IMG/VR virus record: IMGVR_UViG_3300036851_000503
Span: 1-36,549 of that record
Direction: 5' to 3' (one strand)
Source: a virus
DNA length: 36,549 bases
A program made the position numbers and the translations under genes. Positions 1-36,549 of this stretch are shown here, piece after piece (positions within the stretch are counted from its first letter, which is position 1; every line of letters begins with the position of its first letter). Below the pieces are notes generated by a model. That model was not told the origin of the DNA, did no database searches, and worked only from the letters and a program-made list of their open reading frames with translations.

Positions 1-2
1 AT

Positions 3-593
3 GTAACAGACAGTGTTTACTCTAATGATGAATTTGAAGTTGATTTATGCAATGGAACCGTTAAACATAAATATAAATTGCAAAATAGAGGGAATCTTAT
101 AGGTGCTTATTGTCTTGTGTTTATGAAAGATGAAAAACCCTTCTATGGATTTGCGAGCTTAAAAGAATATTCAACTGGTAAATCGCTATGGAATCCAGAA
201 ACAGGAAAGCCTGAAACCATGATAAAGAAGGTTGCAGAAAGCCAAACTATTAGACAGGCTGCTCCTTCATATTTTAATGGTACCTATGATGAATCAGAAG
301 ATTGGTCAAAAGAAGACAAAAAAGTAATAAATAAACCTGTAAAAGAAAAAGAAAATTCAGAAACAGTAATTATTGATCAAGATGGAAATGAAATTGGAAT
401 AGATAATGATGTAATGGATGTTTTTGTAAATATAATAAAAACTTGTGAAACTATAGAAGAATTAAAGCAAACTGCACAGTCTATTAAAAAAGCAAGCGTT
501 AATAAAAAACAAAGAGAAGAGTTAAGAATGCTTTACGATGATAAAATGAATTATCTAAAAGAAGAATTCCTTAAGCAAGATATTTTAATGTAG
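3..593 (+). CDS. bet: Phage recombination protein Bet (RecT family), C-terminal part
   Basis: Single-strand DNA annealing protein of phage recombination. The frame is open from base 3, so the 5' end lies outside the window. Visible family features are the GAYC block followed by a KPFYGF strand, the TGKSLWNPETGKPETMIKKV core, the helix AESQTIRQAAP, and the GTYDESE motif that closes the conserved domain in Bet/RecT proteins. A charged, less conserved tail follows. A TTG at 78 could be mistaken for a start but lies inside the conserved domain. A matching Bet N-terminus begins at 36448 on the same strand, so the gene very probably wraps around the window ends. Identification is by recalled family motifs. 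Confidence 0.88.
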   Translation, partial: VTDSVYSNDEFEVDLCNGTVKHKYKLQNRGNLIGAYCLVFMKDEKPFYGFASLKEYSTGKSLWNPETGKPETMIKKVAESQTIRQAAPSYFNGTYDESEDWSKEDKKVINKPVKEKENSETVIIDQDGNEIGIDNDVMDVFVNIIKTCETIEELKQTAQSIKKASVNKKQREELRMLYDDKMNYLKEEFLKQDILM

Positions 594-13229: not shown

Positions 13230-13241
13230 CCATGGCTCCTA

Positions 13242-13257
13242 TGTTCCACGTGGAACA
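13242..13257. other. parS: parS-like ParB-binding palindrome
   Basis: TGTTCCACGTGGAACA is a perfect 16-bp palindrome, extended to 18 bp by A13241 and T13258. It equals the chromosomal parS consensus recognised by ParB (TGTTNCACGTGNAACA type, the form known from pseudomonads). It lies in the 28-bp gap between the gp10-like gene and the next ribosome-binding site. A degenerate second CACGTG site at 13173-13188 matches 12 of 16 positions. Function in this phage is inferred. Confidence 0.7.
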
Positions 13258-15189
13258 TTAAATTCTTATATTTGCAATACCATCTGTGCAAACAAAACGT
13301 CCAATACCCCAAAATCTGAACTGACATACTGCATCATTTGCAATTCCCAATTGCCACCACATCAATCTATTTTTACGCTTCCCAATAGGATTTAATTCAT
13401 AGGAAGCATAAGAACTAAAAGATGCTCCCCCGTCATATGAGATCGATAAATCAACACGTGGCACTGATTGAATATAAGAAGGAGGGTCAGGGTTAGGCGC
13501 AAGTTGTTCTTCAATTATAACTACGGTATCTTCTTCATCTTCAGTGATCAGAACATCAAATTCTTCAGTTAGCAATCCTATTTGAAATCCAGGTAAAGGG
13601 TCTGCTTGTTGTAATTGATAATCAGTAAAGCCGGTTTCAATCGTAAAACCAACATCATTAAAGATAAAATAATCTTGAGAGGGCAAACGAATATTATCAC
13701 ACACTCTAATACGCGGTATCTCGACTGTTTCTACGGTACCATTAGGAAGAACATTATCGTAAGTAGTAAATATTGTATCGAAAACGAAAAGATTCCCATT
13801 ATCTTTTGTAATGGAGAAATATTGATTATTAAACCAAACTACTTGTCCCATAATATAATAGTTCATATTATGATCAGATGCATTGAATATTTGCTTCGTA
13901 TTAAAATCTACAACGAATGAAATATTATCTTCGTAGAAATTTAAATGATAAAAAAGATGACCGTTTTTCCGATATAAAAATCCTTGCGCCGATTGTGGAT
14001 TATCGATTTCTGATAACTGATAATCAATCCCATCTGTAGTTATTTTCTCTGGCATTCCGCCTGTAGTATACATGATCACAGGTCCTGATTTTTCATTACG
14101 TGCAAGCCAGACAACAACCTCATCCATTGAAGCAACCGTTGCTGGATTTAAACATCCATAGTCTATCGAGGACTGATTCTGTCGTTGATAGGGAAATAAT
14201 TGAGCGCCTGTATCATACCAAAACTCAGTAACGGTTTCCCCCATTACAAGAATCATATTACCTTTGCTTGGGAATCTTACAACAGCCTGTGTATTGTCGG
14301 GTTTAGTTTCCAAAAGACCTACAGTTTGTGCAATATCAAACCACAAAAATCCATTATTCTGAGATGATAATCGCCATGTGTTATTTGCAGGAGGAGAGTA
14401 GAAAGTATCATCACTTGCTGCAGCTAAAAAATAGGTATCATGAAAATTTATATAACCCGGGGTAAAAAGCGTATCTATGATAAAGAAATTGCTTTCAACG
14501 ACAACTTGCCAAATCCCTACTGTAATAGGAAAAGTAACCGCTGTATCATTATTGATATCGGGAATACTAAGTGCTAACTGAAAAGTAGTTTCATCAGTTG
14601 TACTATCGTAATTAAGATTAAAAATATAATAAGTGGTTTCATCATTAAGACCCGTTGGCAAGCTGGCACCTGATAATGTAATAGGCTCTCCTTCTGCAAA
14701 AAGATATTGTCCAGTAATGGTAATAGTATTGGCAACCGAAGCATCCCAATCAAAAGTTCCAACGGAAAGATTCGGATCATACAAATAAAGCGCACTATTA
14801 TCTGATATTAATATCTGTGGTTTATTATTCTCAGAAATATAAACAACTCCATTGGAAGTTTGAAGCTGCCCTAATTGACTAACTAGAGGTGCTAATACTT
14901 TTTGCTGTTGATGATCATACTGAAGAGTTATTTTATAAACCGTGGAATCAAAAACACCAATAATAGAATTAAGTTTTACTGATTCATAAAGGCCGCGCCC
15001 TTCCATTGCATTTTGAAATGCCGTCGATTCAACCCCTATTTTATATCCAGGATAAGGAACTAGCCATCCATCTGAAATAGTCATATTATAAGTCTTCTGA
15101 CTATCCATTTTCTCGTATAAACCAAATACACTTGAGCCTACCATTTTCAAGGGAACTTGCTTTGTATTTTGTCCGCGTTTTACTGGCAT
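13258..15189 (-). CDS. P22 gp10-like packaged-DNA stabilisation / tail hub protein, 643 aa
   Basis: ATG 15189. Residues 1-130 and 227-640 follow the pattern of the P22 gp10 tail hub: an N-terminal PVNM-like region (YNMTISDGWLVPYPGYK), beta-propeller-like repeats with ILVMGETVTEFWYDTGA, VVVWLARNEKSGPVIM and a C-terminal RLMWWQLG...FRFWGIGR block. It is about 170 residues longer than gp10. Part of the excess is an inserted beta domain at about 153-226 (GEPITLSGASLPTGLNDETT), which recurs in the collar fibre, and an acidic loop near 540-565. It probably plugs the portal after packaging and joins the tail. Confidence 0.75.
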   Translation of the reverse strand: MPVKRGQNTKQVPLKMVGSSVFGLYEKMDSQKTYNMTISDGWLVPYPGYKIGVESTAFQNAMEGRGLYESVKLNSIIGVFDSTVYKITLQYDHQQQKVLAPLVSQLGQLQTSNGVVYISENNKPQILISDNSALYLYDPNLSVGTFDWDASVANTITITGQYLFAEGEPITLSGASLPTGLNDETTYYIFNLNYDSTTDETTFQLALSIPDINNDTAVTFPITVGIWQVVVESNFFIIDTLFTPGYINFHDTYFLAAASDDTFYSPPANNTWRLSSQNNGFLWFDIAQTVGLLETKPDNTQAVVRFPSKGNMILVMGETVTEFWYDTGAQLFPYQRQNQSSIDYGCLNPATVASMDEVVVWLARNEKSGPVIMYTTGGMPEKITTDGIDYQLSEIDNPQSAQGFLYRKNGHLFYHLNFYEDNISFVVDFNTKQIFNASDHNMNYYIMGQVVWFNNQYFSITKDNGNLFVFDTIFTTYDNVLPNGTVETVEIPRIRVCDNIRLPSQDYFIFNDVGFTIETGFTDYQLQQADPLPGFQIGLLTEEFDVLITEDEEDTVVIIEEQLAPNPDPPSYIQSVPRVDLSISYDGGASFSSYASYELNPIGKRKNRLMWWQLGIANDAVCQFRFWGIGRFVCTDGIANIRI

Positions 15190-27365: not shown

Positions 27366-27399
27366 TTGAATTGTTGATATGTTGTTACTATACTAACAA
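27366..27399 (+). promoter_or_regulatory. Promoter with operator for the pilin gene
   Basis: TTGAAT (27366-27371), 17-bp spacer and TATACT (27389-27394) form a good sigma-70 promoter. The -10 lies inside a perfect inverted repeat TTGTTA (27382-27387) and TAACAA (27394-27399), spacer 6, a likely repressor site. The region 27299-27365 toward the divergent late operon is AT-rich without another clear promoter. Confidence 0.65.
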
Positions 27400-27432
27400 T
27401 GTAATGAGTTAAAACAAAAAAAGGAGAATCAA

Positions 27433-27861
27433 ATGCGTAATTCAAAAGGTTTCACTCTAATAGAAATTCTAATAGTTTTAGTAATAATGACTATTTTGGC
27501 TTTAACACTATTGCCTAATATTAAAAAATATAGTCAAAAAGCGCAGTTTGCAGATAATATTACTGCTGCAGCTGCTGTTAAACAGGACGTGGAAATGTGC
27601 ATTGTTCATTATGGCGCTGATTGCGTTCCAGGATCATCAAATGGATCAATCCCAATTACTATTAGTAATTATGGTGGATATGTATCAACTGTAACTGTTT
27701 CACAGGATTTGAACAAAATTACAGCGACTAGTGTCTCTAAGTTTGGTCCTAATAGTGATGCACCTTATACATTTATTTTACAACGTACTGTAAACGCTAA
27801 TGATGTAACTGTTTATTCAGTCGATCCAACAAGTACATGTATTGCAGCGGGGATATGTTAA
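27433..27861 (+). CDS. Type IV pilin-like protein, 142 aa
   Basis: ATG behind AAAGGAG. The N-terminus is a complete class III signal: MRNSK, Gly6, then FTLIE with Glu at mature position 5, followed by a 20-residue hydrophobic helix (ILIVLVIMTILALTLLPNI). Such a protein is cleaved and N-methylated by PilD prepilin peptidase and assembled into type IV pili or related pseudopili. Cysteines 56, 64, 136 and 142 could form two disulfides, the last as the C-terminal loop of pilins. It has its own promoter, is the first plus-strand gene and is not part of the virion operon. Minor pilin, pseudopilin or superinfection-exclusion role cannot be decided from sequence. Confidence 0.85.
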   Translation: MRNSKGFTLIEILIVLVIMTILALTLLPNIKKYSQKAQFADNITAAAAVKQDVEMCIVHYGADCVPGSSNGSIPITISNYGGYVSTVTVSQDLNKITATSVSKFGPNSDAPYTFILQRTVNANDVTVYSVDPTSTCIAAGIC

Positions 27862-27953
27862 TGGGTGAAAAGTTTTTTAAATTTTTGGTATACAGTTGTA
27901 TTTTTTCATTAGCAATATGGATGATACTAATAACCATTAAAGTATTTTTATAA
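27861..27953 (+). CDS. Single-pass membrane peptide, 30 aa
   Basis: ATG shares a base with the pilin stop (TAATG), implying coupled translation. Almost entirely one hydrophobic helix (FKFLVYSCIFSLAIWMILIT) with a short basic start. It could be a pilin partner or membrane anchor. Too short for family assignment. Confidence 0.5.
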   Translation: MGEKFFKFLVYSCIFSLAIWMILITIKVFL

Positions 27954-27963
27954 ATAGCTTTAC

Positions 27964-28095
27964 GACAAAAGTGGCGTTGACAGTGAAACGCATGGTGGTT
28001 CTCGAGAATACGCGATTCTCTAAATGATGATCCCGACACATAATATCATCATTCGAGTAAACAGTGTCTAGCCGGTTCAATTCCGGCCTTTTGTC
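27964..28095 (+). ncRNA. tRNA-like structured RNA, 132 nt
   Basis: 5' GACAAAAG (27964-27971) pairs with 3' CTTTTGTC (28088-28095), a perfect 8-bp acceptor-like stem. The T arm is canonical: GCCGG (28071-28075), loop TTCAATT, CCGGC (28083-28087). A D-arm-like hairpin GCGTT/AACGC (27974-27978, 27987-27991) follows the stem. The middle is non-canonical: a hairpin GAGAA-TACGCGA-TTCTC (28004-28020, 7-nt loop without U33) and a 9-bp hairpin AATGATGAT/ATCATCATT (28023-28053); an alternative stem GACAC/GTGTC (28035-28039, 28064-28068) exists. No CCA is encoded. It could be a degenerate tRNA, a tRNA with an insertion, or a tRNA mimic. Anticodon not assignable. Confidence 0.6.
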
Positions 28096-36447: not shown

Positions 36448-36549
36448 ATGACAAATGAAATTTTAACAAATTCTCAGTTAACTATATGGGAAGAAAAATA
36501 TAAACTTTCAGAGATAAAGAAAATTTATGGTAAAGATCTAACAGATATA
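36448..36549 (+). CDS. bet: Phage recombination protein Bet, N-terminal part
   Basis: ATG with GAGG upstream; 34 codons before the window ends. MTNEILTNSQLTIWEEKYKL and SEIKKIYGKDLTD fit the first residues of Bet proteins (helix then KxxIA/YxKxLTDxEF). The C-terminal part of the same family lies at the window start on the same strand. The two frames do not join directly, so roughly 50-60 codons of the gene appear to be absent from the window. Confidence 0.75.
   Translation, partial: MTNEILTNSQLTIWEEKYKLSEIKKIYGKDLTDI

What the first reader, a model, noticed from the sequence alone, without database searches (positions are those of the whole stretch)
27433..27861. Type IV pilin-like gene carried by a phage, with its own regulated promoter
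Complete prepilin motif (Gly6, FTLIE, mature Glu5), hydrophobic helix and a C-terminal Cys loop. A sigma-70-like promoter with a perfect operator over its -10 region suggests expression separate from virion genes. A phage pilin could enter host pili and change twitching, DNA uptake or adsorption by pilus-specific phages.
Basis: partly seen in the sequence, partly recalled or inferred. Interest (0 to 1): 0.78.

Follow-up and report, generated by a model that had tools for sequence, protein, structure and literature searches.

The report
Host-like pilus protein carried by phage
A small tailed bacterial virus carries a full-length copy of the bacterial gene for the main building block of type IV pili (retractable surface fibres), probably taken from a bacterium and used to alter the infected cell's pili; similar genes turn up now and then in other phages, but what they do there has apparently not been tested.

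Summary
The gene is real. ORF 27433-27861 (+, 142 aa) encodes a complete type IV prepilin: 6-residue leader, Gly(-1), Glu5, Pro22 and four cysteines. It is more than a shared signal peptide. The globular domain alone scores 40.6 bits against gammaproteobacterial PilA sequences (best of 1000 shuffles: 10.6), all four host cysteines are kept, and a tree puts it inside the PilA group on a long branch. It is therefore a captured, fast-evolving major-pilin (PilA/PpdD-type) gene.

The carrier is a nearly complete, circularly permuted, P22-portal podovirus-like genome. The gene lies opposite the virion genes, at the head of a run of small genes, and is absent from related phages, so it is an accessory ("moron") gene. 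Phage pilins are already known: PHROG 3433 "pilin", the unnamed PHROG 27437, Synechococcus phage ACG-2014f and Vibrio phage 033B. I also found an independent full-length PilA in a phage contig with ribonucleotide reductase genes.

The claimed regulated promoter is not supported. Promoter-like hits are at chance frequency, and the "operator" is an imperfect palindrome expected by chance and not repeated.

Most likely function: matured by host PilD, then entering or competing with host pili, changing pilus-dependent phage adsorption or pilus dynamics. This is inferred, not shown.

The parts
27433..27861 (+). Phage-encoded type IV prepilin (PilA/PpdD-type), 142 aa
   Evidence: ORF; Pfam N_methyl E 4.1e-9; NCBIfam best hit PRK10574 PpdD E 6.8e-14, below its cut-off; full-length match to gammaproteobacterial PilA, E down to 1.2e-17
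27433..27450 (+). Class III leader peptide MRNSKG, ending in Gly(-1); predicted PilD cleavage site follows
   Evidence: sequence; alignment
27451..27621 (+). N-terminal helix of the mature pilin (F1, T2, E5, P22 conserved)
   Evidence: predicted helix residues 9-63; conserved columns
27598..27624 (+). First Cys pair, C56 and C64 (25 of 25 host pilins compared)
27838..27858 (+). C-terminal Cys pair, C136 and C142 (TCIAAGIC; host consensus TCxxxGLC)
27422..27426 (+). Ribosome-binding site AGGAG
   Evidence: sequence
27366..27394 (+). Promoter-like TTGAAT-17-TATACT; not more frequent than chance in this region
27382..27399 (.).
27861..27953 (+). 30-aa hydrophobic ORF (MGEKFFKFLVYSCIFSLAIWMILITIKVFL) whose ATG overlaps the pilin stop codon (TAATG); possibly translationally coupled
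   Evidence: sequence; no PHROG match

Best explanation
The gene is a major type IVa pilin (PilA/PpdD-type) captured from a gammaproteobacterial chromosome and kept by the phage as an accessory 'moron' gene. Shown by sequence: complete prepilin, full-length PilA homology, four conserved cysteines, accessory placement. Inferred: during infection it is made as a prepilin, inserted in the inner membrane, cleaved after Gly6 and N-methylated by the host prepilin peptidase PilD, then drawn through Glu5 into the host's PilB/PilC-driven pilus assembly, where it co-polymerises or competes with host PilA. Because its surface-exposed domain has diverged strongly, mixed or replaced pili would carry a different surface or behave differently. 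The likeliest benefit is excluding pilus-dependent competitor phages; a change in twitching, attachment or DNA uptake is second.
For: Full-length hits to one PilA-like gene per genome in 15 of 16 genomes of one gammaproteobacterial order and in 13 of 369 sampled genomes of the class at E <= 1e-12. Several of these host genes sit directly beside an ORF that reads as pilB, with a PilR-like regulator upstream (my reading of the neighbours). Globular domain alone: 40.6 bits against a host-PilA profile, best shuffle 10.6. The tree places it inside the PilA group, branch length 2.05. Best solved-structure relatives by sequence are PpdD and PilE; by fold, Neisseria pilin, Foldseek probability 1.00. 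Predicted lollipop architecture. Lies on the opposite strand from the virion genes; absent from related phages. A gammaproteobacterial bin holding two related portals (41-43%) has both such a pilin and a T2SSF/PilC-type protein. Literature: phages block type IV pili for superinfection exclusion (PMC8764522, PMC11436027), and pilin sequence variants change phage binding (PP7: PMC5820433; MDA phage: PMC12819557).
Against: No experiment. The host is not identified: MAG bins holding related phage contigs span Bacteroidetes, beta- and gammaproteobacteria, an archaeon and Saccharibacteria, so some are mis-binned. Several near-invariant PilA positions differ (mature L6I, M7L, A11V, A20L, Y24I in the core helix, and W122Y in the globular domain), so assembly could be altered or blocked. 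Only one sequence of this phage pilin is known, so selection on it cannot be measured. Structure model is of modest confidence (pLDDT 68.5, pTM 0.51).
Confidence: 0.55

Rival explanations
1. Dominant-negative poison: the phage pilin is processed and enters the pre-assembly pool but does not fit the filament core, so it jams or depletes host pili instead of decorating them. The phage benefit (superinfection exclusion) is the same but the mechanism is loss of pili.
For: Near-invariant core-helix positions are changed while the processing site, Glu5 and Pro22 are kept. Known phage anti-pilus proteins act by removing pili (PfsE binds PilC, PMC8764522; phage proteins inactivating PilB, review PMC11436027).
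Against: All four cysteines and the globular fold are kept, which a pure poison would not need.
Confidence: 0.2
2. Host-conversion or fitness gene: the pilin gives the infected cell altered adhesion, aggregation, DNA uptake or metal uptake that helps the phage spread, with no role in phage exclusion.
For: PilA pili serve DNA uptake and biofilm control, and PilA2 of Legionella supports iron acquisition independently of piliation (PMC13170364).
Against: No integrase- or CI-sized repressor ORF was recognised, so a long-lived carrier state is not evident.
Confidence: 0.15
3. Recently acquired or decaying cargo without function.
For: Long branch (2.05); absent from related phages.
Against: Intact ORF with strong ribosome-binding site, all processing and disulfide residues kept; compact phage genome; independent capture of PilA in an unrelated phage (L060).
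Confidence: 0.07
4. The protein is a virion or virus-specific protein that only borrows a pilin-like signal and helix.
For: N-terminal pilin helices are widespread and easily matched.
Against: Globular domain is homologous to PilA by itself; Foldseek finds bacterial pilins, not viral folds; gene lies opposite the virion genes.
Confidence: 0.03

Closest known systems
Type IVa major pilin PilA / PpdD (NCBIfam PRK10574; solved PpdD 6gv9)
   Same: Prepilin motif, Glu5, Pro22, length, four-Cys pattern, full-length alignment with host PilA
   Different: Encoded by a phage; 31-41% identity; scores below the PRK10574 equivalog cut-off (52.2 against 138 bits, as do the host homologues tested); altered core-helix residues
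PHROG 3433 'pilin' and PHROG 27437 (no function given): phage-encoded pilin-like families
   Same: Phage-encoded prepilins; 27437 is the best PHROG hit here (E 8.7e-11) and covers most of the PilA of phage contig L060 (E 9.5e-25)
   Different: This protein matches 27437 only over residues 1-62; its globular domain is closer to host PilA profiles
Phage anti-type-IV-pilus proteins (PfsE of Pf4; PilB-inactivating proteins)
   Same: Presumed target is the host type IV pilus; presumed benefit is superinfection exclusion
   Different: Those are inhibitors that do not resemble pilins; this is a pilin itself, so it could act by subunit replacement
Pilin genes in isolated phages: Synechococcus phage ACG-2014f and Vibrio phage 033B (pilin beside the terminase small-subunit gene)
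   Same: Single phage-borne prepilin gene
   Different: Different pilin subgroups, similar mainly in the N-terminal helix

Membership tests
Type IV prepilins (class III signal peptide) | Short basic leader ending in Gly, then F-T-L-x-E and a hydrophobic helix | tested here: met
   PF07963 36.1 bits against cut-off 21.2; TIGR02532 27.7 against 16.3
Type IV prepilins (class III signal peptide) | Cleavage and N-methylation by PilD | not testable with these tools
   needs biochemistry
Type IVa major pilin PilA/PpdD | Homologous globular beta-domain, not only the N-terminal helix | tested here: met
   40.6 bits with the first 34 mature residues removed; best of 1000 shuffles 10.6
Type IVa major pilin PilA/PpdD | Conserved Cys pairs including the C-terminal disulfide loop | tested here: met
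   C56, C64, C136, C142 align with host Cys present in 25, 25, 21 and 22 of 25 sequences
Type IVa major pilin PilA/PpdD | Curated equivalog score (NCBIfam PRK10574) | tested here: not met
   52.2 against 138 bits; host homologues L034 (99.5) and L048 (80.4) also miss it, so the cut-off is specific to close PpdD relatives; the protein is therefore filed as a PilA-type homologue, not as PpdD
Type IVa major pilin PilA/PpdD | Main subunit of an assembled pilus | not testable with these tools
   needs pilus purification
Phage moron / accessory gene | Present in one phage, absent from related phages, own orientation | tested here: met
   0 of 8 related viral records carry N_methyl; none in the MAG with the 50% relative; opposite strand to virion genes. 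Some of these records may be incomplete
Phage moron / accessory gene | Own promoter and terminator | tested here: inconclusive
   promoter-like hits at chance level; RNA-seq needed

The most novel reading that the evidence does not exclude
Phages repeatedly capture host major-pilin genes and use the variant subunit to rebuild or jam the host's pili: receptor replacement as a form of superinfection exclusion, distinct from the known inhibitors of PilB or PilC.
Probability: 0.25. Interest if true: 0.75.

Novelty: new member of a known kind. Interest (0 to 1): 0.42.

Why it matters
Type IV pili are a common phage receptor and the machine for DNA uptake and twitching. A phage that supplies its own major pilin would be a direct way to change the receptor without destroying it. 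The literature searches made here returned no paper testing a phage-encoded pilin, although such genes recur in public phage genomes, so a simple expression assay could open a neglected set of genes.

Tried and rejected
Regulated promoter/operator: tested against shuffles, chance-level. Virion-protein reading: rejected by family searches, fold search and gene placement. Close relatives of the pilin in viral contigs by single sequence: only N-terminal matches in marine T4-like contigs with tandem prepilins. Terminase as a bait for relatives: no confirmed hit; the portal worked. tRNA and Rfam scans of the window: nothing above threshold. Host by related portals in genomes: bins of several phyla, so only the gammaproteobacterial bin (two related portals) is taken as a weak hint. 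Literature searches for phage-encoded pilins returned no functional study.

Full report
What is there. The ORF at 27433-27861 (+) is intact, starts with ATG behind a good AGGAG site and encodes 142 aa. It has a complete class III leader (MRNSKG), the FTLIE motif with Glu5, Pro22, a long N-terminal helix and four cysteines. Pfam N_methyl scores 36.1 bits against a cut-off of 21.2.

The carrier. The window is an uncultivated virus record of 36,549 bases with a P22-type portal, terminase subunits, head closure, lysozyme, replication initiator and RecT. The last 34 codons of the window read as the start of a RecT protein and the first 196 codons are the RecT C-terminus (Pfam RecT, profile positions 83-192). 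The contig is therefore, by my reading, a circularly permuted, nearly complete genome cut inside recT. No integrase-sized ORF is left unexplained on inspection of the ORF list, and no CI-type repressor was found, so lifestyle is unknown. The pilin lies opposite the virion genes and heads a rightward run of small genes that includes HTH and ribbon-helix-helix regulators.

What the protein is. By sequence its best solved relatives are PpdD (6gv9, E 1.1e-7) and Neisseria PilE. The best NCBIfam hit is PRK10574, the PpdD pilin (E 6.8e-14, below cut-off). Protein searches of genomes gave full-length hits (residues 4-142) to one pilin per genome in 15 of 16 genomes of a small-genome gammaproteobacterial order and stronger ones elsewhere in the class (E 1.2e-17). 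Several of these genes sit next to an ORF that reads as pilB with a PilR-like regulator upstream, i.e. they are the PilA gene; in the small-genome order the pilin lies beside an ORF that reads as ileS. To exclude a match due only to the common N-terminal helix, I removed the first 34 mature residues: the remaining domain still scores 40.6 bits against a host-PilA profile, against 10.6 for the best of 1000 shuffles. All four cysteines coincide with host cysteines. The tree puts the phage protein inside the gammaproteobacterial PilA group with a long branch, so its exact donor cannot be named. AlphaFold gives the usual lollipop shape with modest confidence (pLDDT 68.5), and Foldseek's top two hits are Neisseria pilins with probability 1.00.

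How common it is. Related phages with 32-51% portal identity lack it, so it is an accessory gene. Phage pilins as such are not new: PHROG 3433 is named pilin, PHROG 27437 is an unnamed family matching over most of a PilA, and isolated phages (Synechococcus ACG-2014f, Vibrio 033B) carry prepilin genes. A search of viral contigs gave 30 loci with pilin-type matches. One of them, L060, is clearly phage-like (ribonucleotide reductase large and small subunits, T4-type lysozyme) and carries an independently captured full-length PilA that pairs with a different bacterial pilin in the tree. Marine contigs L002 and L003 carry three or more tandem prepilin genes.

How it probably works. Shown: a complete, conserved prepilin of PilA type in a phage accessory position. 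Inferred: maturation by host PilD, entry into the pilin pool, and co-assembly or competition with host PilA. Two effects are most likely: altered pilus surface (receptor replacement) or jammed assembly. Both fit superinfection exclusion, for which phage anti-pilus inhibitors are the precedent (PMC8764522; PMC11436027), and pilin sequence is known to decide phage binding (PMC5820433, abstract; PMC12819557). Effects on adhesion, DNA uptake or metal uptake are possible (PMC13170364). The 30-aa hydrophobic ORF overlapping the pilin stop codon (27861-27953) could be a coupled membrane partner, but no homologue was found.

Verdict. Real feature; a new member of a known but functionally untested kind. 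The regulated-promoter part of the finding should be dropped.

Noticed in passing
window 13241-13258: Perfect 18-nt palindrome ATGTTCCACGTGGAACAT in a short intergenic gap; it contains TGTTCCACGTGGAACA, which from memory is the consensus chromosomal parS (ParB-binding) site, although no parAB was seen in the phage. A related phage (L019:6827, inside a gene, 1 mismatch) has a parS-like site close to the same place. Could mean the phage uses host ParB.
   Followed up: partly
window 27964-28095: tRNA-like element just downstream of the pilin: 8-bp acceptor-type stem, D-like stem, perfect T arm (GCCGG-TTCAATT-CCGGC), but about 132 nt long and without a canonical anticodon arm. Acceptor plus T-arm structures of this kind: 1 here, about 0.05 expected by chance.
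   Followed up: partly
L005:3934-4014 and L022:5950-6035: Related phages carry tRNA-like elements about 2.4 kb upstream of terL too: one with a GAAA tetraloop where the anticodon loop should be, one called tRNA-??? with a 4-base anticodon (taga) by ARAGORN. Odd anticodon-less or shifted tRNAs in one phage group deserve a look.
   Followed up: partly
L002:5364-7271 and L003:5334-7306: Marine T4-like contigs carry clusters of three or more tandem prepilin-like genes (plus a further ORF with a prepilin-like SLAEF motif), enough for a small pseudopilus-like set.
   Followed up: partly
L089:2501-2974 (Vibrio phage 033B): An isolated Vibrio parahaemolyticus phage has an unannotated complete prepilin (157 aa) directly beside its terminase small-subunit gene; a culturable system to test phage pilin function.
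   Followed up: partly
window 1-593 and 36450-36549: The contig ends split one recT gene, so the record is a circularly permuted near-complete genome.
   Followed up: yes
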